Shown: positions 1,698-64,000 of the stretch, piece after piece
Layout of the letters: each line of letters starts with the position of its first letter
Position numbering within the stretch: position 1 is the stretch's first letter
Position numbers and translations under genes: made by a program
Notes under the pieces: model-generated
Seen by the model: the letters and a program-made list of their open reading frames with translations, nothing else
Databases searched by the model: none
Told to the model about the DNA's origin: nothing
Assembly (NCBI RefSeq): GCF_032362555.1
Contig: NC_083534.1
Location: 4,571,001-4,635,000 of the forward strand
Source of the DNA: Amyelois transitella
Lineage: Eukaryota > Arthropoda > Insecta > Lepidoptera > Pyralidae
Direction: 5' to 3'
DNA: 64,000 nucleotides

Positions 1698-4600
1698 CTA
1701 CAACTTGGACCTCCTGAGATCCTTCTCCAGGAACTGCGCTATCGTCTCCGCCATGCCGTCGGGCGTGAGGTGGGCGTCGTGCTCGCCGTGCAAGTCGACT
1801 AAGGTCATGTTGGTCCGGGCTTTCAATGCTTCCATCAGTTTCAACGCGTCTTCTCGCCCGCTCGTTATGCCCTGTCAAAGTAATACATACATATGTTCAC
1901 GTCTGTATCACTTGCGGGTTAGACAGAGCCGACGGTCTTGAAGACTGATGGGCCACGTTCAACTATTTGGCTTTAAGATAGAATACATACATACATATGG
2001 TCACGTTTGTATCACTTGCGGGTTAGACAGAGCCGACTGATAGGCTACGTTCAACTATTTGGATTTAAGATAGAATTGAGATTCAAATAGTGACGGGTTG
2101 CTAGCGCATCGCTTAAAAGAAGAATCACAAGTATATAAGCCTATCCCTTAGTCGCCTTTTACGACATCAATGGGAAAGAGATGCGAGTGGTCCTATTCTT
2201 TTTTTCTATCGCTGTCGGAAACCACACGGAACTTAAGTACCTACGTAACTTCTAAAATAGTCACTTAGTTAATGAATGTTGCTTGCATGAAGAAAGTTAT
2301 GAATGTGGATGAAGCGAAGGAAATATGCAGAGATCGTGGCAAGTGGAAAGAGGTAGTCTCTGCATATCCCTCCGGGAAAGAGGCGTGATTTTATGTATGT
2401 ATGTAGTTAATAAATCACAAATATATATTTTAATGTATACTCGTACAATGTGCATTCATCTACGATTGAGATATAAATTGACTTTCGGTGAAAATGCTGC
2501 AGTGTAGTTCGTTCCACCGCTTCTTCTACACACGCGATTCGGAAGCGGCAGTAGTTATAATTAGATTTAAGTGATGTGACGTCAATAAGTGATACCTCGT
2601 GTCCAATTTTGAAAATAAATCTATTCTATTTTTGACGGCCTCTGTGGCGCAGCTACGCTTGTCTGTGACACCGGAGGTCCCGGGCACGAATCCCGGCCAG
2701 GGCATGATGAGAAAAGAACTTTTTCTGATTGGCCTGAGTCTTGGATGTTTATCTACTTAAATAAGTATTTATTATAAAATACAGTATCGTTGAGTTAGTA
2801 TCTCGTGACACAAGTCTCGAACTTACTTCGAGGCTAACTCAATCTGTGTGATTTGTCCCGTATATATTTATCCACACTAATAATAAAGAGGAAAGATTTG
2901 TATTTTTGTATGTTTGTGTGGAATTAACTCAAAAACTACAGGTCCGATTTTGATAAAATTTGGCACAGATATAGAATAGACCTTCAAAAGTGACATAGGC
3001 ATAAATTTGTTTTTACTCTTTGTTTATTTAAAAAAAAACACAAAGATATGTCCACCCGTGCGAAGCCGGGGCGGGCCGCTAGTATTTTATATATTTACTA
3101 GCTGTCCCGGCAAACGTTGTTTTGCCATATAAATAATTTTTAGTTAAAAAATATGTTAAGTGTGGACAACCCATATCACTAAGGGGTATGAAAAATAGAT
3201 GTTAGCCGATTCTCAGACCTACTGAATATGCATGCAAAATTTGGTTAAAATCGGTAAAGCCGTTTCGGAGGAGTACGGAGACAAACATTGTGACACGAGA
3301 ATTTTATATATAAGATATTGTATATTATTGTAGTGCCGTGTGGTTCCCGGCACCATTACAAAAAAGAATAGGACCACTCCATCTCTTTCCCATGGATGTC
3401 GTAAAAGGCGACTAAGGGATAGGCTAATAAACTTGGGATTCCTCTTTTAGGCGATGGGCTAGCAACCTGTCACTATTTGAATCTCAATTCTATCACTAAG
3501 CCAAACAGCTGAGCGAGGCCTATCAGTCTTTTCAAGACTGGTGGCTCTGTCTACCCCGCTAGGGATATAGACGTGATCATATGTATGTATGTATGTATAT
3601 TGTATTCATACCTTGTGGCCGTTAGACATGTTGATGAGGACGGAAGGCGGCGCGGTGCTGAACAGCTCCGCGTAATACTCGTTGGGGAAGTTCTGCGGGA
3701 CGCAGTCGGCCGTGCGCCGGTCCCACGACAGCCTGCGACATGTGCTACTGTAGCGACCGCCTTTATGTGCGCGAGAGCAACGGTCGCCGTGGTTTTGTTG
3801 GTTAGGTAAAACAATGTCAGATATAACTCACTCGCTCGCTCGCTCGCTCGGTCGCTAGCTCGCTCACACACTCTCTCTCTAGCACGCTCGCTCACACACT
3901 CTCTCGCTAGCACGCTCGCTCACACACTCTCTCGCTAGCACGCTCACTCACTTACTCGCTCGCTCGCTAGCACGCTCACTCACTTACTCGCTCGCTCGCT
4001 AGCACGCTCACTCACTTACTCGCTCGCTCGCTCGCTCGGTCGCTAGCTCGCTCACACACTCTCACTCGCTCGCTAGCACGCTGACTCACTTACTCACACA
4101 CTTGCTCGCTCGCTAGCACGCTCACTTACTTACTTACACGCTCGCTCGCTAGCACGCTCACTCACTTACTCACTCGCTCGCTCACACAATCACGCTCGCT
4201 CACACACTCTCTCGCTAGCACGCTCACTCACTTACTCACTCGCTCCCTCGCTAGCACGCTCACTCACTTACTTACTCGCTCCCTCGCTAGCACGCCACTC
4301 ACTCACTCGCTCGCTAGCACGCTCACTCACTTACTCACTCGCTCCCTCGCTAGCACGCCACTCACTCACTCGCTCGCTAGCACGCTCACTCACTTACTCA
4401 CTCGCTCCCTCGCTAGCACGCCACTCACTCACTCGCTCGCTAGCGCGCTCACTCACTTACTCACTCGCTCCCTCGCTAGCACGCCACTCACTCACTCGCT
4501 CGCTAGCGCGCTCACTCACTTACTCACTCGCTCCCTCGCTAGCACGCCACTCACTCACTCGCTCGCTAGCACGCTCACTCACTTACTCACTCGCTCCCTC

Positions 4601-7600
4601 GCTAGCACGCCACTTACACGCTCGCTCGCTAGCACGGCCCAAGGGATACAGACGTGTTGACATGCACGCACCTGTAGTGGTCGTCCCCCAGCGCGATGAG
4701 GTTCCGCCGCAGCAGCAGCTCGGCGAGCTCGGCGCCCACGCGGCGCGCGCGCACCACCGCCTCCAGCGCTTTACGTTTCGTGTACACCTGCATCGGGAAT
4801 TTATTATCATACATACATATGGTCACGTCTATGTCCTTTGCGGGGTAGACAGAGACAACGGTCTTGTAAAGTCTGATAGGCCACGTTCAGCTGTTTGGTT
4901 TAATGATAGAATTGAGATTCATATAGTGGCATTTTATTATTTGAATCTCAATTCTATCATTAAACCAAACAGCTCAAATTACATTACATAACATAATATT
5001 CAAGTCTATATCCTTTGCGGGGTAGACAGAGCCAACTGTTATGGAAAGACTGAAAGGCCACGTTCAGCTGTTTGGCTTCATGATAGAGTTGGGATTCAAA
5101 TAGTGACAGGTTGCTAGCCCATCGCCTAAAAAAGAATCCCAAGTTTGTAAGCCTATCCCTTAGCCGTCTTTTACGACATCCAAGGGAAAGAGATGGAGTG
5201 GTCCTATTCTTTTTAGTACTGGTGCCGGGAACCACACGGCACTTACGAACAATCCAGATACTAATATAAATACCTTGAAATAATAATTATAATTGTCGTA
5301 ATTGTCGTAGAAGCTCTGAAAGTAGGTGCTGAAGTAGCGGTCGGGGCGCTCGCTGTTCTGCAGCCGCTGGAAGGTCAGCAGCGGGTCCAGGTGGACCATC
5401 CTCGTTATCATTCCAGGTCTCACCGCGTTGAAGAATAGACCTGATGGGATGAGAAAGGATATTGAAGATTTGAACAGGAGGCAAACATTTTTTTTGGCAA
5501 TGAAATTACATAGGTACATACGTACATACATACATACATAAAATCACGCCTCTTTCCCGGAGGGGTAGGCAGAGACTTCCTCTTTCCACTTGCCACGATC
5601 TCTGCATACTTCCTTTGCTTCATCCACATCCATAACTCTCTTCATGCAAGCTCGGCGGTTTCGGGTACTTTTGACCTGACCCTTTACCAGGACGTCCTTA
5701 CATAGGTACATACATACATAAGTATTATATATATATATATATATATATGTACCTATGTAAACGTGATTATATATATATATATATAATCACGTCTATATCT
5801 CTTGCGGTGTAGGCAGAGCCAAAAGTCTTGAAAATACTTAGGCAACCTGATAATATTTGAATCTCAATTCTATCAGTGGGCCAGGCGGCTGAACGTGGCC
5901 TTTCAGTCTTTTCAACACTGTCGGCTCTGTCTACCCCGCTAGGGATAAAGACGTGATTATATGTATGTATGTATGCTATTCTAATGATGAGTTACCTAGC
6001 TCGCATCCCATAGAGTGGCCCACGTATATGAACTTGAGCCATCGCAGATGTTTAACCACTACGTCTATGGCGCCTAGGTAGTAATACCGCCACACTGGGA
6101 GACCTGCGAATAAGAGTTAAGAATACATACGTACATACACATAAACACGTACATTCATACATATTTTTCGAGTATATGTATGTATGTACAATTTATTTAT
6201 TCACACTGAAATTTTTATTCAAAAAATTGAGTCACTCGAAAAATTTATTTACACAACTGTAGAAACTCTCTCAACTTACTTGTATAACAATAACGTCATA
6301 CAATGTGTGTTTGTTTAAACATATAGTTATATCAATATTAAACCAAAACATATAATAGAACAGCAGGAATAATGTGTCTTTATATCCCAACTAATATTAA
6401 CAATGTGAAAGTAAGTTTGTTGGGAAGCCAAAAGTCTTGAAAAGACTGACAGGCCACGTTCAGCTGTAAGTTATAGAATTGAGATTCAAATAGTGACAGG
6501 TTGCTAGCCCATCGCACTGTAAGAAGAATCCTAAGTTTATAAGCCTATCCTTTAGTAGACTTTTACGATATCCATTGGAAAGAGATGGAATGGTCCTATT
6601 CATTTTTATATTGGTGCCGGGAAGCACACGGTAGTATAAATATAATTTGTCATTTGGAAAGAAAAAGCTCTTTACAAAATGTCACTTAACTAGGGATTCC
6701 CCTAAACAGGAGACACCTAGCGTGGTGACAATAAACTTAGTTAAGTATATGGATGAAGCGAAGGAAGTATGCAGAGAACGTGGCAAGTGGAAAGAGGTAG
6801 TCTGCCTATCCCTCCGGGAAAGAAGCGTGATTTTATGTATGTACGTATGTCATGTGTTGTGTCATGTATGTCTTCATCCACATTCATAACTCTCTTCATG
6901 CAAGCTCGGCGGTTTCGGGTAATTTTGACCTGACCCTTTACCAGGACGTCCTTAATTTGATCAAGATACGTTCGTCTAGGTCTTCCCATTCTTACAGTAC
7001 GAAGTATCAGTTGACTTGACCATACCGGTCTTCCCACTCCGACCTTTCCCTCCACACTCTCCTTGTATATCTGCTTAGTCAACCTGCTTTCATTCATCCT
7101 CTCCACATGACCGAACCATCTCAACATACCCTTTTCTATTCCTGTAACTACATCTTCTTTCACATCACAACATTTTATGATTTTATGTATGTACCTATGT
7201 AAGTGGTAGTGCGCTTGTCTGTGACACCGGAGGTCCCGAATCCCGGCCAGGGCATGATGAGGAAAGAACTTTTTCTGATTGGCCTGGGTCTTGGATGCTT
7301 GTCTATATAAGTATCTATCATAAAATATAGTATCGTAGAGTTAGTATCTCGTAACACAAGTCTCGAACTTACTTCGAGGCTAACTCAATCTGTGTAATTT
7401 GTCCCCTATCTATACTAATATTATAAAGCTGAAGAGTTTGTTTGTTTGAACGCGCTAATCTCAGGAACTACTGGTTCGAATTGAAAAATTATTTTTGTGT
7501 TGAATAGACCATTTATCGAGGAAGGTTTTAGGCTATATAACATCACGCTGCAACTATTAGGAGCGAAAAAATAATGGAAAATGTGAAAAAAAAAACGGGA

Positions 7601-18091: not shown

Positions 18092-21000
18092 ATGAAGGAA
18101 GTGACCGAGTGGACGATTGATGTGGTTGGACTTAAAATAGCGAGTAAGTTAAATATATATATACATTTTTTATTTTATTTATTTAGGAATCAACATTTGA
18201 AATATGACAATCGTATTAATAAAACTTAATGCCAATAAGAGATTATTGATTAAAACTACTTTGAAAAAAAAACGCATCACTCACATAGCGTAAGTATGAT
18301 TGATCAATTGAAATTAAAAAAAAAATTAGTCATTATCATGGTACATTTCAGACATCACTTAATAATTGCCGTTTCTTTGGTTTCACAACATTGTTGACGT
18401 CAAATAAATAACGTAAAACGAAATTTACTGTCGCTTCCGAAGCGTCAGTGCAGAAGAAGCGGTAGCAAACTGCACTGCTTCATTTTCTTCAATAATGCCA
18501 ACTTCACAATTATTATCCAAACTTAGAATTTGAATAGAAATTTGGACGAGAGAATATATTGTTATGTCTATATATTGTATTTAATTGAAATTTAAATGTG
18601 TTTGTAGTAAGTACGCATACTGATGAGTGAGTATGTACTGTGTCACACGTCTGTGAGGCGTGGCGGTGGCATATTTACTTCATTTATTTATTTACTAATT
18701 TATGCTATGCGTATATTAATGCCGTGTGGTTTCCGGCACCAACACAAAAAAGAATAGGACCACTCCATCTCTTTCCCATGGATGTCGTAAAAGGCGACTA
18801 AGGGATAGGCTTAATCTCTTGGGTTTCTTCTTTTAGGCGATGGGCTAGAAAACTGTCACTATTTGACTCTCAATTCTATCACTAAGCCAAATAGCTGAAC
18901 GTGGCCATTCAGTCTTTTCAAGACTGATGGCTCTGTCTACCCCGCAAGGGATATAGACATGACCATATGTATGTATGGACTAATTTATGTACTTACACAG
19001 AAAACATCGAGACTGATAAACACAGAAACAAAATTACACAGGTTCTGCTTATTTCAAAAGAAATCTCTTCCAGCAGACCCGAGATAGGAGACGTGATGGA
19101 AAGGGTGACAGGCGTGTACTCCACTCACACTACCAATATATTTACTTTATTTCTCTTTCCAAGACTGTTGGCTCTGTCTACCCCGCAAGGGATATAGACG
19201 TGAGCATATGTATGTATGTTCTCTGCCATCTTTACGATGTTAACACGCTGTTCTGGTGCCTATATTCTTATTTATCTTTGTTATTTTCTTCCTCCTGGCT
19301 TCAGTCCCGGTTGCATCCTCACCGCTCTGGAGAGGAGCCCGGGGTACGCCTTTGACCGTGGACCCTGGGTAGGGTGAGTCAGGTTTTGCCACCATACCTG
19401 ACCAGCATATTAGCTTTACTTACAGCTTTGCTCGCGCGAATTTAGTGCCATACATACATACATATTGTACAAACTAATGAATACAACTGTTTTATTGCTT
19501 TTAATTAACTTTGTTTTATTGGAGCTAAACGATGCACACTACATGACATACAGGAAGTGTTCTACCATAACAAAGCAGCCAACCGTAAAATTATAAAAAT
19601 TAAAACTTATAATGCCACCATAAGAAGATTATTTGTGTTGCCATATTCTAACACCCCTTCTCAACACAAATATATTTTCTATGATATACGTCTATATATA
19701 ACAAAAGGTAGAAACAAAACAATATCCTTATCCATGTAACAGTTAGGCATTAATTTTTACTTAAATTTGTCACACGACACTCATTCAAATGTTTTACAAT
19801 TAATTCCTTACTTAGACCTTGGTTAACATATCTGCAGGTTGCTCGTTAGTCTTAATGTATTTAATACATATTTTATTTTCTTTTACTAGATCCTTAATAA
19901 AATGATAGCGAATGTCTACATGTTTTAATCTTTTTAAAGTGTCTGAATTTGCATTTATTATTGCTGCCTGGTTATCAAAAAATATATTAACAGGGCAAAC
20001 ATTTTCACAATTGAAATCCGCTAATAAATTTATTAACCAAGATACATCACTAGCTGCCATACTCAATAACACATACTCAGATTCGGTGGAAGACAGACTT
20101 ACTGAAGCTTGCTTTTTGGAAGACCACGAAATCAAACAATCTGACAACTTGAACATATAACCTGAGGTGGACTTTCTGTCCAATACATCACCTGCCCAAT
20201 CAGCATCACAATAGCCTTGTAAATTAATATCTTTACATTTAAAAATCAATTTATAATTTAATGTATGTTTAGTATATCTTAAAACTCTTTTTAAGGCACT
20301 TAATAACTCACTATTTGCGATTGATTGATATCTACTCAGCAAGGAAACGGGATAGCAAAGATCAGGTCTTGTGCACAAGTTGTGTACCTATTTTTAAAAC
20401 ACTTAAACTTTTAACACTACCCTGTGTTTATATAATGGAAATATGTATTTTTGTTAAATCTAATCCGCACTTATTTCAAAAATTAATAGACACTAGAAAG
20501 AGACTAAATAATTTGAGATCCCAATATCAACTAAAACTGGCAACTGGAGGTCATAAGACTGCTATGCTTGGCAAGAGTGTGATTGGTATGGCTCCTATTA
20601 TTTTTAACAAATTACCGGATTATCTAAAAAAATTGGACATAGTAACATTTAAAAAGGAAATAAAATTATTACTAACTGATAAGTGCTATTATTATAGCGT
20701 CAATGACTTTTTAAAAGATATTGTGACATAATTATTATATTTTATTTTTATTAAATATTAATTGATGACATTATTGCTAAATATATATTATTTTTAATTA
20801 AGTATAAATTAAGGCGAAATTTTGATTTTTAATTTATTATTGAATGATTTAAATTCAAAATGAAAAAAAATGATCTGACTGAATTATTGTACGTCTTATG
20901 AAGACAGATCACAGTGACACGAACTGTTTTGTATCATCTTTTCTACCTGTGTTTCCGCAATAAAGAGATTTGATTTGATTTGATTTGTGCCTGATGCTGC

Positions 21001-24000
21001 ATACATTAAGCAACCTATTATTTCTCTGCACATCTTCTCAATATTTTTATCTTTATGAACATTTTCATTTGCAAATATTTTAGTGTTAAAATTGATGTCC
21101 ATAGGGGTTGACATAGCTTTACAATTTTCACCTAGGACCTAGACCAAAGTCTAACCTGCTCAAAACCCCTAGCCTAGTTTTGTACTGGTTATTACTATTT
21201 ACTTTAAGCTTAAAACCCACTTACTACTTATAATATTTTCACTCACCGGAGCATCAGTAAAAGTCCAAGTATTATTATCATTTAAGGTTTGTGATTCTAT
21301 CTTAATTGCCTCCTTCCACTTGCTTGCATCTTTCCTTTCCATAGCCTCTTGGTATGTAGTTGGTTCACTCTTCTTACTTACAATATTATGGCACTGGTAG
21401 AATGACGTCGGTTTCCTCCCTCGCCTACTCTTTTCGTTCCTCCTCCTCCTCCGTGTCCTCCATCTCTGATTCCTCTTCACAGGGCTCATATTCGCTGTGA
21501 GATTCATCTCCCCGGTAGACTCGTCATTGAAAGAAGTAAAAGTTTCGCTTGCACTTCGGGTCTCTCTGTCTTCAGTTGTCTCACTGACCTTCATATCTTC
21601 CTGAATTTCATCTTGAATATGTAATGGCCCGCAGCCATTCAAATCCAATGTGACAATTGATTCATTTTCTTTACAAACATCTTGTTTTAAGAAAATCACA
21701 TCCCTTTTAGTATCTATAGTTTCTCTCGGGAAAATAAACTGTAACATAACATCTTCCGACATTCTTGTCACCAGAAGTGTTTGAGCCTTTGCCTCCTTAG
21801 ACTCCCAACTAATTCGTTCTGCAGTATCCTTAGGTTTCACAATCCATATCCAACCATCCCTGACCCCTCAAAATTACGGTCATTTGAAATTTCCATATAT
21901 TCCAGTTTCGGGCTCCTTCCAGTTTCATTACATTGTTCGTGCTATTTATTGGATTTACTTCCATCGTGCTGTCCTTCCTTACTCTTTAGCTGGAGCAAGT
22001 ATTAAAGTTTTCGACGGAAATTTTATTGGCAGACCTACCCTCACTTTTCGCCTATAATAAAATAACTAACGCTCGATGTCACTGATTTTAGATTTTCTTA
22101 CAGGTAGGCGTTACTGGGCCATAACCTGTACAAACTAATGAATAAAACTGTTTTATTGCTTTTAATTAATTATGTTTTATTTGAGCTAAACGATGCACAC
22201 AACATGACATACAGGAAGTGTTCTACCATAACAATGCAGCCAACTGTAAAATTATAAAAATTAAAACTTATAATGCCACAATAAGAAGATTATTTGTGTT
22301 GCCATATTCTAACACATATAATCACGTCTACATCCTTTGCGGGGTAGACAGAGCCAACAGTCTTGAAAATAATGATAGGCCACGTTCAGCTATTTGGCTT
22401 TAAGATAGAATTGAGATTCAAATATAGTGACAGGTTGCTAGCCTATCGCCTAAAAGAATCTCAAGTTTATAAGCCTATCCCTTAGTCGCCTTTTACGACG
22501 GGAAAGAGTTGGAGTGGTCCTATTCTTTTTTCTATTGGTGCCGGTGTTTTGTGTCATTTAGTGCTATTTAGTGTCATCTGCAAAAGAACACAGGATTTTC
22601 GCAAATCGCACGAGAACTATAGCTTTACCGGGATGAAATGTATTATGATATCCTTCTCCAGACTCTTAAATATCAAGAAGAGTGGTTCGTAGATTACCCG
22701 TGACATACATACATACATACATATGATCACGTCTATATCCCTAGCGGGGTAGACAGAGCCACCAGTCTTGAAAAGACTGAAAGGCCACGCTCAGCTGTTT
22801 GGCTTAGTGACCCGTGAAGAGGTAACAAACAAACCTTTTAAAGCGTTGTTATTCCAGTGCTAAGCTGGGGCTCCCGCGGCGCCCCCGGGGTGCTCCTGCT
22901 GCACGGGCACGGAGACTCCGCGGCCACCTTCGCGCCGCTGCTCGCCCTGCTGCCTGGAGGGTTCCACTATGTCGGCTTCGACTTCCCAGGTTTGTTTGTA
23001 AATTCAATTTAAAAAAATAAAAAAAATATTCATTATTATAGGATACTATATATCGCTCAATAATTGTCGTATGGTTTAACAACATACATATATGCAGGCA
23101 ACCTTCTTGGTGTGCGCCATAGCAACGGTTGCCATGATGTTTTATGTTACAGATATAATTTTAATTGTTAGATGTTCTATGATGTGCCGTGTGGTTCCCG
23201 GCACCAATACAAAAAAGAATAGGACCACTCCATCTCTTTCCCATGGATGTCGTAAAAGGCGACTAAAGGATAGGCTTACAAACTTGAGATTCTTTTTTTT
23301 TAGGCGATGGGCTGGCAACTTGTCACTATTCGAATCTCAATTCTATCTTAAAGCCAAATAGCTGAACGTGGCCTATCAGTCCGCTCAGGACTGTTGGCTC
23401 TGTCTACCCCGCAAGGGATATAGACGTGATTATATGTATGTATGTATGTATGTTAGATGTTCTTAATTTTATGTTGAATAATATAGTGATTTTTAACTGA
23501 TTATTTCTCTCCTCTTTTCTCCTTTCTTCTGTAGGAATTAAATAACTTTAATAACTATGTACCCTTTCTACAAATACGTACATATGTACATGTAATCACG
23601 TCTGTGGCGACATCTCTACGCCACAAGTCACAAAAAGAAAATCACGCGACGCTATCAGTGTAATCCCAGGCATAACACCTAGCCTGGCGGAAGATCTTCC
23701 CTTTGGTGGCGGTCGAGCCCGAATCATCGCTCCCGCTACGCGTCTATATCCCTTGCGGGGTCGACAGTCTTGAAAAGACCGAAAGGCCACATTCAATTTG
23801 TATATCTTAAGAATGGAATCGAGATTCAAATAGTAACAAGTTGCTAGTTTTCGCCTACAAGAAGAAACCCTAGTTTACTAGCCTTTTTCTAAATCGCCTT
23901 TTACGAAATCCATGGGAAACATATGAAGTCCTTTTATTATCCTAGCGGCCGGGAATCGTAAAGTCGATCATAACTCTCAAAGCCAGAATTTCCAAACATT

Positions 24001-27000
24001 ATGTTTTCGGATTTAACTTCCAGGTCACGGCAAGTCTGACTTCCTCCCGGCCGGGCCGCTGCCTACCCACTCCCTCTTCCTGGAGGTCATCAGGAAGGTG
24101 CTGCAGCATTTGGAGTGGGAGACCTTCATGTGCATCAGCCATTCCATGGGAGGAGCATTGGGTACGTAATTCTGATTTTATTTATTTATATAAACTTTAT
24201 GCACGTAAAATGCATCTCTGCCAGTCGAATCTTGTTCTGACGCCATGTCATGTCACACAGTTTGAAGACATGTCGTGTCATGTTGTGGCCATATTCTTTA
24301 AGTCACATGTAGCATCCATCTTGTAGATACCATGCAGCGGCCATCTTGTTGATGTCACATGTTGAAGTCATCTTGTTGATGTCACATGTTGAAGTCATCT
24401 AATTAACAAATGTGACAAGTTCCAGTCATTTTGTTCCACCGTCTGTGATGATGTGGCCATTTTCTTTATGTCACGTGTAGCATCCATCTTGTTCATACCA
24501 TGCAGCGGCCATCTTGTTGATTTCATGTAGCTGCCATCTTGTCATCAAATGTGTCGTGTTCCAGCCATCTTGTTCCACCGCCTGCGGCCGGGGCTGACCC
24601 GGCTGGTCTGCCTGGACCCGCTGTACGGGCTGTTGCGCTACTCCGGCATGACGGAGCACCACAGCAAATATCTTAGTCTCATGTCACATGTGTCATTTTG
24701 CAGCCATCTTGTTGATGTCTAATGTTGAAGTCATCTAATTAATAAATGTGACATGTTCCACGGTCTGAAACCATCCGTCACATGTAGCATCCATCTTGTA
24801 GATACCATGCAGCGGCCATCTTGTTGATGTCATGTAGCATCCATCTTGTAGCCATGCAGCGGCCATCTTGTTGATGTCATGTAGCATCCATCTTGTAGCC
24901 ATGCAGCGGCCATCTTGTTGATGTCATGTAGCATCCATCTTGTAGCCATGCAGCGGCCATCTTGTTGATGTCATGTAGCATCCATCTTGTAGCCATGCAG
25001 CGGCCATCTTGTTGATGTTATATAGCAGCCATCTTGTTGATGTCATGTAGCATCCGTCTTGTAGCCATGCAGCGGCCATCTTGTTGATGTTATATAGCAG
25101 CCATCTTGTTGATGTCATGTAGCATCCATCTTGTAGCCATGCAGCGGCCATCTTGTTGATGTTATATAGCAGCCATCTTGTTGATGTCATGTAGCATCCG
25201 TCTTGTAGCCATGCAGCGGCCATCTTGTTGATGTCATGTAGCATCCGTCTTGTAGCCATGCAGCGGCCATCTTGTTGATGTTATATAGCAGCCATCTTGT
25301 TGATGTCATGTAGCATCCGTCTTGTAGCCATGCAGCGGCCATCTTGTTGATGTTATATAGCAGCCATCTTGTTGATGTCATGTAGCATCCATCTTGTAGC
25401 CATGCAGCGGCCATCTTGTTGATGTCATGTAGCATCCATCTTGTAGCCATGCAGCGGCCATCTTGTTGATGTTATATAGCAGCCATCTTGTTGATGTCAT
25501 GTAGCATCCGTCTTGTAGCCATGCAGCGGCCATCTTGTTGATGTTATATAGCAGCCATCTTGTTGATGTCATGTAGCATCCATCTTGTAGCCATGCAGCG
25601 GCCATCTTGTTGATGTCATGTAGCATCCATCTTGTAGCCATGCAGCGGCCATCTTGTTGATGTTATATAGCAGCCATCTTGTTGATGTCATGTAGCATCC
25701 GTCTTGTAGCCATGCAGCGGCCATCTTGTTGATGTTATATAGCAGCCATCTTGTTGATGTCATGTAGCATCCATCTTGTAGCCATGCAGCGGCCATCTTG
25801 TTGATGTCATGTAGCATCCATCTTGTAGCCATGCAGCGGCCATCTTGTTGATGTTATATAGCAGCCATCTTGTTGATGTCATGTAGCATCCGTCTTGTAG
25901 CCATGCAGCGGCCATCTTGTTGATGTTATATAGCAGCCATCTTGTTAATGTCATGTTGCAGCCATCTTGTTCCATCGCCTGCGGCCGGGGCTGACCCGGC
26001 TGGTCTGCCTGGACCCGCTGTACGGGCTGCTGCGCTACTCCGGCATGACGGAGCACCACAGCAAGTTCGTCAGTCTCATGTTCTACGAGCGGTACTACGA
26101 CACGCTCTACCGCAATTTCAGGTAAACATGTTCAGACAAATCCTAGTTAATTGGTAGTTAATAGGTACATACATATAATCGCGTCTTTCTCCCTTACGTG
26201 TGCCGTGTGGTTCCCGACACCAAAAGAAAAAAGAATAGGATCACTCCATCTGTTTCCCATGGATGTCGTAAAAGGCGACTATCGGGTAGGCATAAGCCTA
26301 CCTAAAAGAAGAATCCCAAGTTTATAAAAACTTGGGATTCTTCTTTTAGGCGATGGGCTAGCAACCTGTCACTATTTGAATCTCATTTCTACCTTAAAGC
26401 CAAATAGCTGAACGAGGCCTTTCAGTGTTTTCAAGACTGTTGCCTCTGTCTACCCCGCAAGGGATATAGACGTGATTATATGTATGTTTGCATGTATTTA
26501 CCCCCTACGGGGTGGACGGAAACAATAGGTTGCTAGCCCATCGCCTACAAGAGGAATCCCAAGTTTTATCCAATCCTTCAGCATTTAAAATTAAAGTAAG
26601 TAATACAATTCAATTTAATTTAATTTATCATGGACCTGGTCTGAAATATATTAATATCTCTCAAACGTACGTTCACGTAATAAGTATACTCATTCCAGCG
26701 AGCCGAAGATATCAACGTACGAGGAAGCGCTTGAGTCAGTGATGCGCACGCGCAAGCTGACGCGGGAGCGAGCCGAACTCATTCTGTCCAGGAACCTCAC
26801 TCCCGCCGGCGAAGGTCTTTACAAGTGAGCCGCAATCTTTGACCAAACTAGCTTTTGCCGGTGGATTCGATCCCGTGTGTATTTCAAAATTAAATGTTAG
26901 TGCGTTGCCGTGTGGTTGCCGGCACCAATGGAAACAAAAAAATAGGACCACTCCGTAATTTTTGAGGGATGTCGTAAAAAGCTACAAAGGAATAGGGTTA

Positions 27001-27475
27001 TAAACTTGGCGATGGGATAGCAACCTGTCACTATTTTAATTACATTATATTACATCATTAAGCTGAACGTGCTGTTCTAGTCTTTTCAAGACTGTTGGCT
27101 CTGTCTACCCCGCAAGGGATATAGACGTGACCATATGTATGTATGTTTGTTAAGTTTTGGTATCCTGGTCTGCCTTCCAGGCTGTCTCCCCAGAAGGCGG
27201 CCTTCCAGACGGCGCACATCCCAGTCACCTTCGACCTCCTGGAACAGATCCTGAGCGACGTCTCCCTGCCCCTGCTCATCTTCCACACCACCCAGGCTTT
27301 GTCCCTCTACAACCAGATCCAGTGTTCCTCGCAGTCTGTCTGCCTGTTCGACCACAGCACCAGGAAGTATAAGGTGGTCTGCGTGGACGGCAGCCACGAC
27401 CACCACCTGCTGAAGCCTGAAGACTTCGTGGATCATATTGTTGACTTTTTAAATACTTGTTCATCGAAGATTTGA
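18092..27475 (+). CDS. Serine hydrolase-like protein, gene 3 (alpha/beta hydrolase, SERHL/kraken type)
   Basis: Exons 18092-18143, 22858-22989, 24024-24161, 25962-26121, 26699-26824 and 27181-27475. All are GT/AG with phases 1,1,1,2,2, totalling 903 nt or 300 aa. Exon 1 (MKEVTEWTIDVVGLKIA) was chosen because it is 52 nt and phase 1, exactly like exon 1 of gene 1, and joins to give KIA-M-LSWGSRG. VLLLHGHGDSAATF follows, then FDFPGHGKSDF. The nucleophile elbow reads SHSMG at 100-104 with Ser102, so the first Gly of G-x-S-x-G is Ser. DGSHDHH at 272-277 carries the probable His275. Exon 4 opens AILFHRLRPGLTRLVCLDPL. Intron 1 holds a Copia element, and intron 3 holds a minisatellite and a truncated extra copy of exon 4. 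An AATAAA lies 56 bases after the stop. Confidence 0.85.
18660..19090. repeat. SINE-A (+, 18719-18980) inserted in a LINE 3' tail
   Basis: The SINE-A copy interrupts a second repeat whose halves (TTTATTTACTAATTTATG before, ACTAATTTATGTACTTACAC after) repeat ACTAATTTATG at the joins, an 11-bp candidate target duplication. Fifteen extra bases lie between the left copy and the SINE start. The host repeat is also seen at 44760-44895. Confidence 0.65.
19140..19395. repeat. SINE-A 3' fragment and SINE-D fragment
   Basis: 19155-19220 is a plus-strand SINE-A tail. 19290-19395 is a minus-strand SINE-D piece (CTTCAGTCCCGGTTGCATCC, GGAGCCCGGGGTACGCC). Confidence 0.65.
19466..19653 (-). repeat. 3' LTR of the Copia element
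   Basis: 188 bp, TG...CA on the minus strand, highly similar to the LTR at 22127-22314 with a handful of substitutions. It is preceded on the minus strand by the purine tract. Confidence 0.92.
19812..21964 (-). pseudogene. Degenerate Copia gag-pol
   Basis: On the minus strand an ATG at 21964 opens MEVNPINSTNNVMKLEGARN, then NWNIWKFQM, a typical Copia gag start. A one-base shift near 21840 leads into the next frame, and gag runs abruptly into a post-integrase linker. The start of the RT domain (EAIKIESQTLNDNNTW, ISSKWVLSLK) ends near 21199. After a deletion comes REIIGCLMYAASGT, a 610-bp LINE insertion, then RPDLCYPVSLLSRY and the RNase H region (GYCDADWAGD, STSGYMFKL, SSTESEYV, HVDIRYHFI) to the end at 19812. 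It cannot encode an active element. Confidence 0.88.
20375..20984 (+). mobile_element. 5'-truncated LINE inserted in the Copia pol region
   Basis: TTGTGC at 20369-20374 and 20985-20990 is the target duplication; removing the insert restores the Copia reading through GTRPDLC. The insert encodes an ORF2 C-terminus to 20731 (LKLLTLPCVYIMEICIF, NLRSQYQLKLATGG, NKLPDYLKKL, FKKEIKLLL), a pattern common at the end of insect LINE ORF2 proteins. A 3' UTR follows, with an AATAAA and a terminal (TTTGA)n tail. It lies in the opposite orientation to the Copia element. Confidence 0.88.
22127..22314 (-). repeat. 5' LTR of the Copia element
   Basis: 188 bp, matching 19466-19653. On the minus strand its last bases TTTGTACA are followed directly by the tRNA-Met-type primer binding site at about 22107-22126. 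Confidence 0.92.
22315..22545 (-). repeat. SINE-A body split from its tail by the Copia element
   Basis: CATATAATCACGTCTACATC through TTCTATTGGTGCCGG. Its (CATA)n tail lies on the other side of the Copia element at 19449-19465, so this SINE-A was present first. Confidence 0.8.
22700..22812 (-). repeat. SINE-A tail-half copy
   Basis: (CATA)n TATGATCACGTCTATATCCC to TTGGCTTAGTGA. It ends about 45 bases before the acceptor of exon 2 of gene 3. Confidence 0.75.
23183..23451 (+). repeat. SINE-A full copy with 12-bp target duplication
   Basis: GTTAGATGTTCT occurs at 23167-23178 and again at 23452-23463 directly after the (ATGT)n tail. A few extra bases (ATGATG) separate the left copy from TGCCGTGTGG. 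Confidence 0.88.
23580..23965 (-). repeat. SINE-A interrupted by repeat C
   Basis: The SINE-A tail ATGTAATCACGTCT breaks at 23603, and repeat C runs to about 23741. SINE-A resumes at CGTCTATATCCCTTGCGGGG. CGTCT is present at both joins, suggesting a 5-bp target duplication for repeat C. Confidence 0.7.
24290..25961. repeat. Minisatellite with 191-bp higher-order unit in intron 3 of gene 3
   Basis: Units are built on GCAGCGGCCATCTTGTTGAT and GTAGCATCCATCTTGTAGCC. From about 24830 a 191-bp higher-order unit (47 + 72 + 72 bp) repeats about five times with very few changes; 24290-24830 is more diverged. The subunit phrase GCAGCCATCTTGTT is the same as the acceptor and first bases of exon 4 at 25959-25971 (CAG then CCATCTTGTT). 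The array therefore appears to have grown from the exon border. Confidence 0.92.
24565..24682 (+). pseudogene. Truncated duplicate of exon 4 of hydrolase gene 3
   Basis: After TTCCAG, the sequence matches 25962-26079 with a few substitutions and would encode AILFHRLRPGLTRLVCLDPL up to HSKYLSLM. It then breaks into repeat sequence with no plausible GT donor, so it cannot replace the downstream exon. It keeps an acceptor-like end and an open frame. More degraded echoes of the same border (TTCCAGTCATTTTGTTCCAC) lie at about 24419. Confidence 0.88.
26160..26495 (+). repeat. SINE-A copy with internal inverted segment
   Basis: A minus-strand tail (26160-26200) precedes a copy starting GTGCCGTGTGGTTCCCGACA. 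At 26293-26350 the AAGAATCCCAAGTTTATAAA block is inverted against itself. The tail is ATGTATGTTTGCATGT. Confidence 0.75.
26905..27148 (+). repeat. SINE-A copy next to the last-exon acceptor of gene 3
   Basis: GTTGCCGTGTGGTTGCCGGCAC to ATGTATGTATGTTTG. Its tail ends about 33 bases before the exon at 27181, so the polypyrimidine stretch GGTCTGCCTTCCAG is all the original intron left there. Confidence 0.8.
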
Positions 27476-61908: not shown

Positions 61909-64000
61909 GGCGGGTTAGGTTAACGGCGGGTTAGGTTAACGGCGGGTTAGGTTAACGGCGGGTTAGGTTAACGGCGGGTTAGGTTAACGGCGGGTTAGGT
62001 TAACGGCGGGTTAGGTTAACGGCGGGTTAGGTTAACGGCGGGTTAGGTTAACGGCGGGTTAGGTTAACGGCGGGTTAGGTTAACGGCGGGTTAGGTTAAC
62101 GGCGGGTTAGGTTAACGGCGGGTTAGGTTAACGGCGGGTTAGGTTAACGGCGGGTTAGGTTAACGGCGGGTTAGGTTAACGGCGGGTTAGGTTAACGGCG
62201 GGTTAGGTTAACGGCGGGTTAGGTTAACGGCGGGTTAGGTTAACGGCGGGTTAGGTTAACGGCGGGTTAGGTTAACGGCGGGTTAGGTTAACGGCGGGTT
62301 AGGTTAACGGCGGGTTAGGTTAACGGCGGGTTAGGTTAACGGCGGGTTAGGTTAACGGCGGGTTAGGTTAACGGCGGGTTAGGTTAACGGCGGGTTAGGT
62401 TAACGGCGGGTTAGGTTAACGGCGGGTTAGGTTAACGGCGGGTTAGGTTAACGGCGGGTTAGGTTAACGGCGGGTTAGGTTAACGGCGGGTTAGGTTAAC
62501 GGCGGGTTAGGTTAACGGCGGGTTAGGTTAACGGCGGGTTAGGTTAACGGCGGGTTAGGTTAACGGCGGGTTAGGTTAACGGCGGGTTAGGTTAACGGCG
62601 GGTTAGGTTAACGGCGGGTTAGGTTAACGGCGGGTTAGGTTAACGGCGGGTTAGGTTAACGGCGGGTTAGGTTAACGGCGGGTTAGGTTAACGGCGGGTT
62701 AGGTTAACGGCGGGTTAGGTTAACGGCGGGTTAGGTTAACGGCGGGTTAGGTTAACGGCGGGTTAGGTTAACGGCGGGTTAGGTTAACGGCGGGTTAGGT
62801 TAACGGCGGGTTAGGTTAACGGCGGGTTAGGTTAACGGCGGGTTAGGTTAACGGCGGGTTAGGTTAACGGCGGGTTAGGTTAACGGCGGGTTAGGTTAAC
62901 GGCGGGTTAGGTTAACGGCGGGTTAGGTTAACGGCGGGTTAGGTTAACGGCGGGTTAGGTTAACGGCGGGTTAGGTTAACGGCGGGTTAGGTTAACGGCG
63001 GGTTAGGTTAACGGCGGGTTAGGTTAACGGCGGGTTAGGTTAACGGCGGGTTAGGTTAACGGCGGGTTAGGTTAACGGCGGGTTAGGTTAACGGCGGGTT
63101 AGGTTAACGGCGGGTTAGGTTAACGGCGGGTTAGGTTAACGGCGGGTTAGGTTAACGGCGGGTTAGGTTAACGGCGGGTTAGGTTAACGGCGGGTTAGGT
63201 TAACGGCGGGTTAGGTTAACGGCGGGTTAGGTTAACGGCGGGTTAGGTTAACGGCGGGTTAGGTTAACGGCGGGTTAGGTTAACGGCGGGTTAGGTTAAC
63301 GGCGGGTTAGGTTAACGGCGGGTTAGGTTAACGGCGGGTTAGGTTAACGGCGGGTTAGGTTAACGGCGGGTTAGGTTAACGGCGGGTTAGGTTAACGGCG
63401 GGTTAGGTTAACGGCGGGTTAGGTTAACGGCGGGTTAGGTTAACGGCGGGTTAGGTTAACGGCGGGTTAGGTTAACGGCGGGTTAGGTTAACGGCGGGTT
63501 AGGTTAACGGCGGGTTAGGTTAACGGCGGGTTAGGTTAACGGCGGGTTAGGTTAACGGCGGGTTAGGTTAACGGCGGGTTAGGTTAACGGCGGGTTAGGT
63601 TAACGGCGGGTTAGGTTAACGGCGGGTTAGGTTAACGGCGGGTTAGGTTAACGGCGGGTTAGGTTAACGGCGGGTTAGGTTAACGGCGGGTTAGGTTAAC
63701 GGCGGGTTAGGTTAACGGCGGGTTAGGTTAACGGCGGGTTAGGTTAACGGCGGGTTAGGTTAACGGCGGGTTAGGTTAACGGCGGGTTAGGTTAACGGCG
63801 GGTTAGGTTAACGGCGGGTTAGGTTAACGGCGGGTTAGGTTAACGGCGGGTTAGGTTAACGGCGGGTTAGGTTAACGGCGGGTTAGGTTAACGGCGGGTT
63901 AGGTTAACGGCGGGTTAGGTTAACGGCGGGTTAGGTTAACGGCGGGTTAGGTTAACGGCGGGTTAGGTTAACGGCGGGTTAGGTTAACGGCGGGTTAGGT
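61909..64000 (+). repeat. 16-bp satellite GGCGGGTTAGGTTAAC, array open at the window edge
   Basis: About 130 tandem copies of one 16-bp unit from 61909 to the last base. I saw no variant unit. Each unit contains TTAGG, the insect telomere word, with the G-rich strand running towards the window end, and the palindrome GTTAAC. It is not a canonical (TTAGG)n array. Confidence 0.97.

What the first reader, a model, noticed from the sequence alone, without database searches (positions are those of the whole stretch)
24290..26121. Minisatellite that copies a gene's own splice acceptor and exon start
The unit phrase GCAGCCATCTTGTT in the array equals the acceptor CAG plus the first bases (CCATCTTGTT) of exon 4 of hydrolase gene 3, which starts at 25962 right at the edge of the array. 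Degraded echoes such as TTCCAGTCATTTTGTTCCAC (about 24419) and a 118-bp exon copy (24565) lie at the other edge. The simplest reading is that an exon border duplicated, and the intron-side part expanded into a 191-bp higher-order repeat. Each unit then offers a decoy acceptor ahead of the true one.
Basis: partly seen in the sequence, partly recalled or inferred. Interest (0 to 1): 0.75.

Follow-up and report, generated by a model that had tools for sequence, protein, structure and literature searches.

The report
Intron minisatellite built from splice border
In an insect hydrolase gene, one intron is almost filled by a tandem repeat whose unit is a copy of the junction between that intron and the next exon, a kind of local duplication known before from amphioxus; it is probably mostly a passenger, though its units also match the binding motif of a gene-silencing protein.

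Summary
Intron 3 (24162-25961, 1800 bp) of an alpha/beta-hydrolase gene is filled from about 24288 to the acceptor by 22-31 bp units. The last unit runs in register through CAG and 10 nt into exon 4. Longer border copies sit in the 5' half: about 20 exon nt at 24426, 120 exon nt at 24565. In the 327-Mb assembly all 31 reported matches to a 28-mer unit (up to 3 mismatches) lie in this intron. Six paralogs read have an intron at the same place and phase and no array; the two closest start exon 4 with homologous codons (A-S-L-Y-H against A-I-L-F-H), so the exon start is probably inherited and the array its copy. Amphioxus arrays of this build are called 'mirages' (PMC3087553). Decoy acceptors exist on paper: 91 YAGs in the array, 33 in frame, only the true one free of a stop; their use is untested. 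Most novel open reading: the intron has 35 matches to the Pho motif CNGCCATNDNND, all on one strand, much like the 25 x 25-bp YY1-site array of human PIK3C2B that acts as a Polycomb element in flies.

The parts
22858..22989 (+). first exon found of hydrolase gene 3 (the start of the gene was not resolved)
   Evidence: clean reading LSWGSRG...DFPG, joined with the next exons; Pfam PF00561 on the joined protein
24162..25961 (+). intron 3, 1800 bp; about 1674 bp of it is repeat or border copy
24288..24424 (+). old, diverged units (25-31 bp), first higher-order block
   Evidence: unit table; block 1 (24288-24455) aligns to block 2 (24456-24590) with score 117 against a maximum of 23 in 500 shuffles
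24420..24445 (+). degraded border copy: TTCCAG plus 20 exon-like nt (TCATTTTGTTCCACCGTCTG)
24456..24563 (+). second higher-order block of units, leading into the exon copy
24565..24684 (+). copy of exon 4 nt 1-120 with its own TTCCAG acceptor; the rest of the exon and its donor are not there
   Evidence: blastn 95% over 121 columns; alignment; junction shares TCATGT with the array unit
24703..24789 (+). third block; its border copy has lost the core between two TTCCA words (TTCCACGGTCTG from 24756)
24790..25961 (+). young, homogeneous array of 22- and 25-bp units, with the 191-bp higher-order repeat from 24905
25936..25971 (+). last unit and true border: GCCATCTTGTTAATGTCATGTTGCAG|CCATCTTGTT, 10 nt of it coding
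25962..26121 (+). exon 4 of gene 3
26699..26824 (+). exon 5 of gene 3
27181..27475 (+). last exon of gene 3, ends at a stop

Best explanation
It is a local minisatellite, with no sign of mobility, born by tandem duplication across the splice acceptor of exon 4: the seed unit joined about the last 15 nt of the intron (AATGTCATGTTGCAG) to the first 10 nt of the exon (CCATCTTGTT). Slippage or unequal crossing-over then made ~25-bp units; larger duplications that reached 20 and, separately, 120 nt into the exon left the longer border copies in the 5' half; a recent wave of 191-bp duplications near the exon made the homogeneous 3' half. The gene most likely still splices to the last CAG (25962), the only YAG of the intron's array that joins exon 4 in frame without a stop; the units before it are mostly passengers that may be used now and then as unproductive acceptors. 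Shown: anatomy, register, no other copy found in this assembly, absence in the six paralogs read, frame consequences. Inferred: order of the duplications, use of the last acceptor, near-neutrality.
For: Register and unit table; inner 191-bp copies nearly identical while the 5' blocks are diverged; an exon copy of 120 nt shows exon-to-intron flow, with TCATGT shared by exon nt 115-120 and the array unit at its junction; 31 of 31 reported unit matches in the assembly are in this intron and the array finds only itself; six of six paralogs read have a phase-1 intron at the same place and no CCATCTTG on either strand; against the two nearest paralogs the first five exon-4 residues are 3 of 5 identical, the rest 18 of 46 and 16 of 46, so this stretch does not look foreign; 33 of 91 array YAGs are in frame and only the true one lacks a stop; the same arrangement is described in amphioxus, where RT-PCR suggested regular splicing (PMC3087553, abstract and passages).
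Against: No orthologous intron from another species and no RNA reads were available. The codon test is modest: a random 10-mer meets it in 0.28% of draws, a shuffled unit in 2.2%. Against the more distant paralogs the first five residues are 1 of 5 identical (genes A and B and L065; rest 14 of 45, 17 of 45, 10 of 41). At DNA level the first 10 exon nt match the two nearest paralogs at 5 of 10 positions (counted by eye). The true acceptor scores below all training sites in a matrix from 13 acceptors (2.9 against 4.5-16.5 left out in turn; 46 of 99 other AGs of the intron score as high or higher, which corrects), so sequence does not settle which site is used; the matrix is very small.
Confidence: 0.77

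Rival explanations
1. Pho/YY1 site array: the minisatellite, whatever its origin, was kept and expanded because most units carry GCCATCTT, the core of the Pho/YY1 motif, and it works as an intronic Polycomb or Pho-dependent element on this gene or its neighbours.
For: GCCATnTT: 37 in intron 3 and 38 with the border, all on the + strand, against 7 + and 6 - in the rest of the window. Pho motif PF 37 and PM 35 in the 1.8 kb, all on the + strand, against 20 and 10 on both strands of 59 kb of the rest; no other 1.8 kb had more than 2 PM in windows stepped by 300. Motif definitions: PMC6735708 (passage), PMC2743690 (passages). A human intronic array of 25 copies of a 25-bp YY1-site unit binds YY1 and silences in flies, with rescue in a Pho mutant (PMC3689693, abstract and passages).
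Against: The motif is a by-product of the acceptor plus exon codons, so a dense array follows from the origin alone. No GAGAG, YGAGYG or EN1 motif lies in the intron, and fly Polycomb elements are told apart by pairs of motifs, not by single ones (PMC6735708, passage). 21 of 57 cores (TCCATCTTG 14, TCCGTCTTG 7) lack the GCC start. No binding data; enrichment was measured against this window only, as the genome-wide count did not complete.
Confidence: 0.12
2. Decoy-acceptor device: the string of acceptors is used to tune productive splicing of the hydrolase by drawing the spliceosome into unproductive sites.
For: 91 YAGs (37 CAG) in the array, the true one included; 14 are CAG|CCATCTTGTT; each of the 32 in-frame decoys reads into a stop; 46 of 99 other AGs of the intron score as high as the true one or higher, and the acceptor of the exon copy scores 5.5 against 2.9.
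Against: Nothing shows use or regulation; in amphioxus, RT-PCR and the Adh3 data suggest that arrays of this kind do not disturb splicing (PMC3087553, passages).
Confidence: 0.1
3. Array first: a minisatellite already in the intron spread over the acceptor and overwrote the first 10 nt of exon 4.
For: 5 of 10 first exon nt match the two nearest paralogs (by eye); Ile stands where these two have Ser; the codon test is met by 2.2% of shuffled units.
Against: Phase and spacing are kept, and four of the first five residues are identical or of the same kind as in the two nearest paralogs; no relative of the array was found elsewhere in the assembly; border copies carry 20 and 120 nt of exon, beyond the array unit.
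Confidence: 0.08

Closest known systems
Amphioxus 'mirage' minisatellites (Adh3, BflGb6, BflGb9; PMC3087553 and the work it cites)
   Same: Tandem repeats made of a splice border: intron 3' end plus exon 5' part (BflGb6), Adh3 units of 10-72 bp, homogenised clusters with the boundary units left out, many units with AG/GT splice signals (passages).
   Different: An insect-like genome, not a cephalochordate; several repeat levels (25, 47/72, 191 bp) and a 120-nt exon copy inside; copy-number variation and splicing not tested here.
PRE-PIK3C2B, intronic 25 x 25-bp YY1-site array (PMC3689693)
   Same: Intronic array of about 25-bp units with a GCCAT YY1/Pho core.
Variable internal tandem repeats in human genes in segmental duplications (PMC2812944)
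   Same: Minisatellites (about 30-bp units) that change gene structure, some at exon-intron boundaries.
   Different: There half of the repeats lie in coding sequence, and those at boundaries may make new introns (passages); here the repeat is intronic and the exon seems unchanged.

Membership tests
Mirage minisatellite (border-spanning tandem repeat) | Unit contains both sides of an exon-intron border of the host gene | tested here: met
   Unit = intron end with CAG plus exon nt 1-10, in register with the true border
Mirage minisatellite (border-spanning tandem repeat) | Array lies next to its parent border | tested here: met
   Runs into the border at 25962; 31 of 31 reported unit matches in the assembly are in this intron
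Mirage minisatellite (border-spanning tandem repeat) | Inner units homogenised, edge units excluded | tested here: met
   191-bp copies at 25208, 25399, 25590 differ by 0-1 base; the last copy by 4-5 and the one at 25017 by 7-8 from these; 5' blocks diverged
Mirage minisatellite (border-spanning tandem repeat) | Regular splicing in spite of the array | not testable with these tools
   No RNA data; only the true acceptor joins exon 4 in frame without a stop
Mirage minisatellite (border-spanning tandem repeat) | Length instability between haplotypes | not testable with these tools
   One assembly only
Polycomb response element (fly type) | Cluster of Pho motifs | tested here: met
   PF 37, PM 35 in 1.8 kb
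Polycomb response element (fly type) | GAF, Zeste or EN1 motifs paired with Pho motifs | tested here: not met
   0 GAGAG, 0 YGAGYG, 0 EN1 (EN1 searched without mismatch) in intron 3
Polycomb response element (fly type) | Pho binding, H3K27me3, silencing of a reporter | not testable with these tools
   No ChIP or reporter data
Dispersed or mobile satellite | Copies at other loci | tested here: not met
   Array and unit matched only this locus in the assembly; the tool skips very common words

The most novel reading that the evidence does not exclude
A splice border that by accident spells a Pho/YY1 site was multiplied by slippage into a dense one-strand array of about 35 sites, creating, from coding sequence, an intronic Polycomb-type silencer of a hydrolase gene about 96 kb from a contig end.
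Probability: 0.07. Interest if true: 0.8.

Novelty: new member of a known kind. Interest (0 to 1): 0.42.

Why it matters
Border-spanning minisatellites were put forward, from amphioxus, as a route to new exons and introns. A case in an unrelated lineage with a readable unit history (10, 20 and 120 exon nt copied, then a fresh 191-bp expansion) suggests that the process is more general, and gives a natural test of how a spliceosome picks one acceptor out of many near-identical ones.

Tried and rejected
Dispersed satellite or mobile repeat: rejected, no copy found outside this intron; exact scans of viral contigs (20-mer) and prokaryotic contigs (24-mer) gave 0, which says little for an insect-like sequence. 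Chance similarity of array and exon: rejected. The exon copy at 24565 as an alternative exon: unlikely, it stops at exon nt 120 and the frame runs into a stop at 24722. A relic still further upstream (about 24207-24237): weak, 1.1% of shuffles reach its score against the exon copy, left open.

The first acceptor matrix held two wrong training sites (exon 3 of L064 and L065, which lie inside coding sequence) and dropped two more that did not end in AG (genes A and B); of 17 sites collected, 13 were used (the two gene-3 exon-4 sites were left out on purpose). It gave the true site 0.1 with 86 of 99 others as high or higher. One search replaces the two: true 2.9, 46 of 99; without them (11 sites): true 0.6, 68 of 99. 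All are given little weight. In one search the 191-bp slice at 24826 is out of register (47-bp pairs lie there), so its 58-61 ungapped differences are not divergence and are not used. In one search paralog L064 did not align at its start, so its row (0 of 5) is an artefact; its exon start is read. One search printed no matches (probably my tblastn option) and was repeated without it. A genome-wide count of GCNGCCATCTTG did not complete.

Paper searches: searches found 0 papers. The listings (the last two cut at 12 of 46 and 12 of 42) showed no border minisatellite in insects; only titles and abstract starts were seen there, so this is no proof that none is in print.

Full report
What was checked. 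The window is G000:C30:4571001-4635000 of a 327-Mb, 33-contig assembly; it ends about 58 kb, and the array about 96 kb, before the end of contig C30. From repeat types that I recall it looks lepidopteran; no call names the species. Gene 3 reads cleanly over five exons (22858-22989, 24024-24161, 25962-26121, 26699-26824, 27181-27475); the start of the gene was not found. The 282 residues match the alpha/beta-hydrolase families PF00561 (E 2.1e-14), PF12697 and PF12146.

Anatomy of intron 3. The intron is 1800 bp (24162-25961); repeat and border copies fill it from about 24288 (1674 bp). A table of cores shows steps of mostly 25, 27 and 31 bp in the 5' part and 25 and 22 bp in the 3' part. The last three cores (25911, 25936, 25961) are 25 bp apart, and the last is the exon border itself: CAG|CCATCTTGTT. 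So the first 10 coding bases of exon 4 belong to an array unit. CAG|CCATCTTGTT occurs 14 times and CAG|CGGCCATCTTGTT 21 times.

Longer border copies. At 24420-24445 TTCCAG is followed by 20 exon-like nt, 4 of them different from the true exon and 3 from the exon copy; at 24565 by exon nt 1-120 (95%); at 24756 the core between two TTCCA words is missing. Blocks 24288-24455 and 24456-24590 align with score 117 against 23 at most in 500 shuffles, blocks 1 and 3 with 92 against 32, blocks 2 and 3 with 45 against 26. The 3' junction of the exon copy shares TCATGT with the array unit, which fits a duplication at short homology. The 191-bp copies at 25208, 25399 and 25590 differ by 0-1 base, the one at 25781 by 4-5 and the one at 25017 by 7-8 from these. 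So the expansion next to the exon is young and the 5' half old.

Direction of copying. The 1191-bp array finds only itself in the genome, and a 28-mer unit with up to 3 mismatches is reported 31 times, 31 of them here, control 0; the tool warns that its DNA search skips very common words and that counts of repeats can be lower bounds. A protein search of the genome gave 29 matches at E up to 10, six of them gene 3 itself with its exon copy. I read the exon-4 start of six paralogs: genes A and B of the window and four more loci (L062, L063, L064, L065); the matches on C12, C8, C4, C6, C20 and C7 were not followed. All six have a phase-1 intron at the same place, of about 340-850 bp (my arithmetic), and none of the six stretches holds CCATCTTG. 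The two nearest, C30:3.41 Mb and C9:5.73 Mb (67% and 64% identical over the first exon found), start CAG|CATCTTTGTATCAC and CAG|CATCATTGTACCAC, that is A-S-L-Y-H, against CAG|CCATCTTGTTCCAT, A-I-L-F-H; the His lies just beyond the array unit. A random 10-mer keeps A, L and an aromatic at these places in 0.28% of draws, a shuffled unit in 2.2%. Against genes A and B and L065 only 1 of the first 5 residues is identical. The exon start is therefore most likely inherited and the array its copy; overwriting of a few bases by the array is not excluded.

Splicing. Of 93 YAGs in the intron, 91 lie in the array; 33 of these are in frame with exon 4, and 32 of the 33 read into a stop; the exception is 25962 itself. 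The nearest decoys (25937 and 25934) would shift the frame. A matrix from 13 acceptors of the family (correcting two training sites) gives the true site 2.9, against 4.5-16.5 for the training sites left out in turn; 46 of 99 other AGs of the intron score as high or higher, against 10% of 3308 AGs elsewhere in the window; the acceptor of the exon copy scores 5.5. Sequence alone thus does not explain why the last AG should win, and RNA reads are needed. In amphioxus, the Adh3 data and globin RT-PCR suggest that such arrays do not disturb regular splicing (PMC3087553, passages).

Pho/YY1 motif. Not part of the finding, but striking: most units hold GCCATCTT. A YY1 paper writes the consensus core as GCCATnTT and its intact sites as (A/C)GCCATnTT (PMC2743690, passages); Pho motifs used in fly work are GCCATHWY and CNGCCATNDNND (PMC6735708, passage). 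Intron 3 has 37 GCCATnTT (38 with the border), 37 PF and 35 PM, all on the + strand, and 14 of the (A/C)GCCATnTT form, border included. The rest of the window (59 kb, the gene-B array and the end satellite left out) has 20 PF and 10 PM on both strands. A human intronic array of 25 units of 25 bp with a YY1 site each binds YY1, recruits PRC2 and silences in flies (PMC3689693, abstract and passages). Against a full Polycomb element: no GAF, Zeste or EN1 motif in the intron, and 21 of 57 cores lack the GCC start. That Lepidoptera have Pho is recalled, not tested.

Comparison. The features match the 'mirage' minisatellites of amphioxus: border-spanning unit, array beside the parent border, homogenised inside with odd edges (PMC3087553). 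Splicing and length instability remain untested. Papers were seen as listings, abstracts and passages, none in full. I file it as a new member of that kind, with more repeat levels than the amphioxus passages describe.

Noticed in passing
3827-4636 (gene B, - strand, in the intron after its exon that ends near 4672): Second intronic array in a neighbouring hydrolase paralog, 63/126-bp units built on GAGC/GAGT; read on the gene's strand, 3820-4670 holds 17 GTAAGT and 31 GTGAGT, donor-like words, the array starting about 35 nt after the likely donor, and 80 YGAGYG Zeste-type motifs on both strands. It is not an evident copy of the border.
   Followed up: partly
61909-64000: About 130 exact copies of a 16-bp unit GGCGGGTTAGGTTAAC that contains TTAGG, the insect telomere word (recalled); the window ends about 58 kb before the contig end, and the next 2500 bases of the contig read N.
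   Followed up: no
L066, last 200 bases (C30:4643801-4644000): Reads like cysteine-rich zinc-knuckle coding sequence, as in the gag-like part of LINE elements; seen by eye only.
   Followed up: no
19812-21985, - strand: Open frames that resemble a copia-type retrotransposon, by eye; no family search was run.
   Followed up: no
24205-24240: Possible still older border relic (CCAGTCGAATCTTGTTC) near the donor; 1.1% of shuffles score as high against the exon copy.
   Followed up: partly
L063 (C9:5730800-5733700, read on the - strand), 2166-2293: 31-bp tandem repeat (2.7-3.8 copies) between what look like exon 5 and the last exon of this paralog: a third hydrolase gene with a probably intronic minisatellite.
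   Followed up: no
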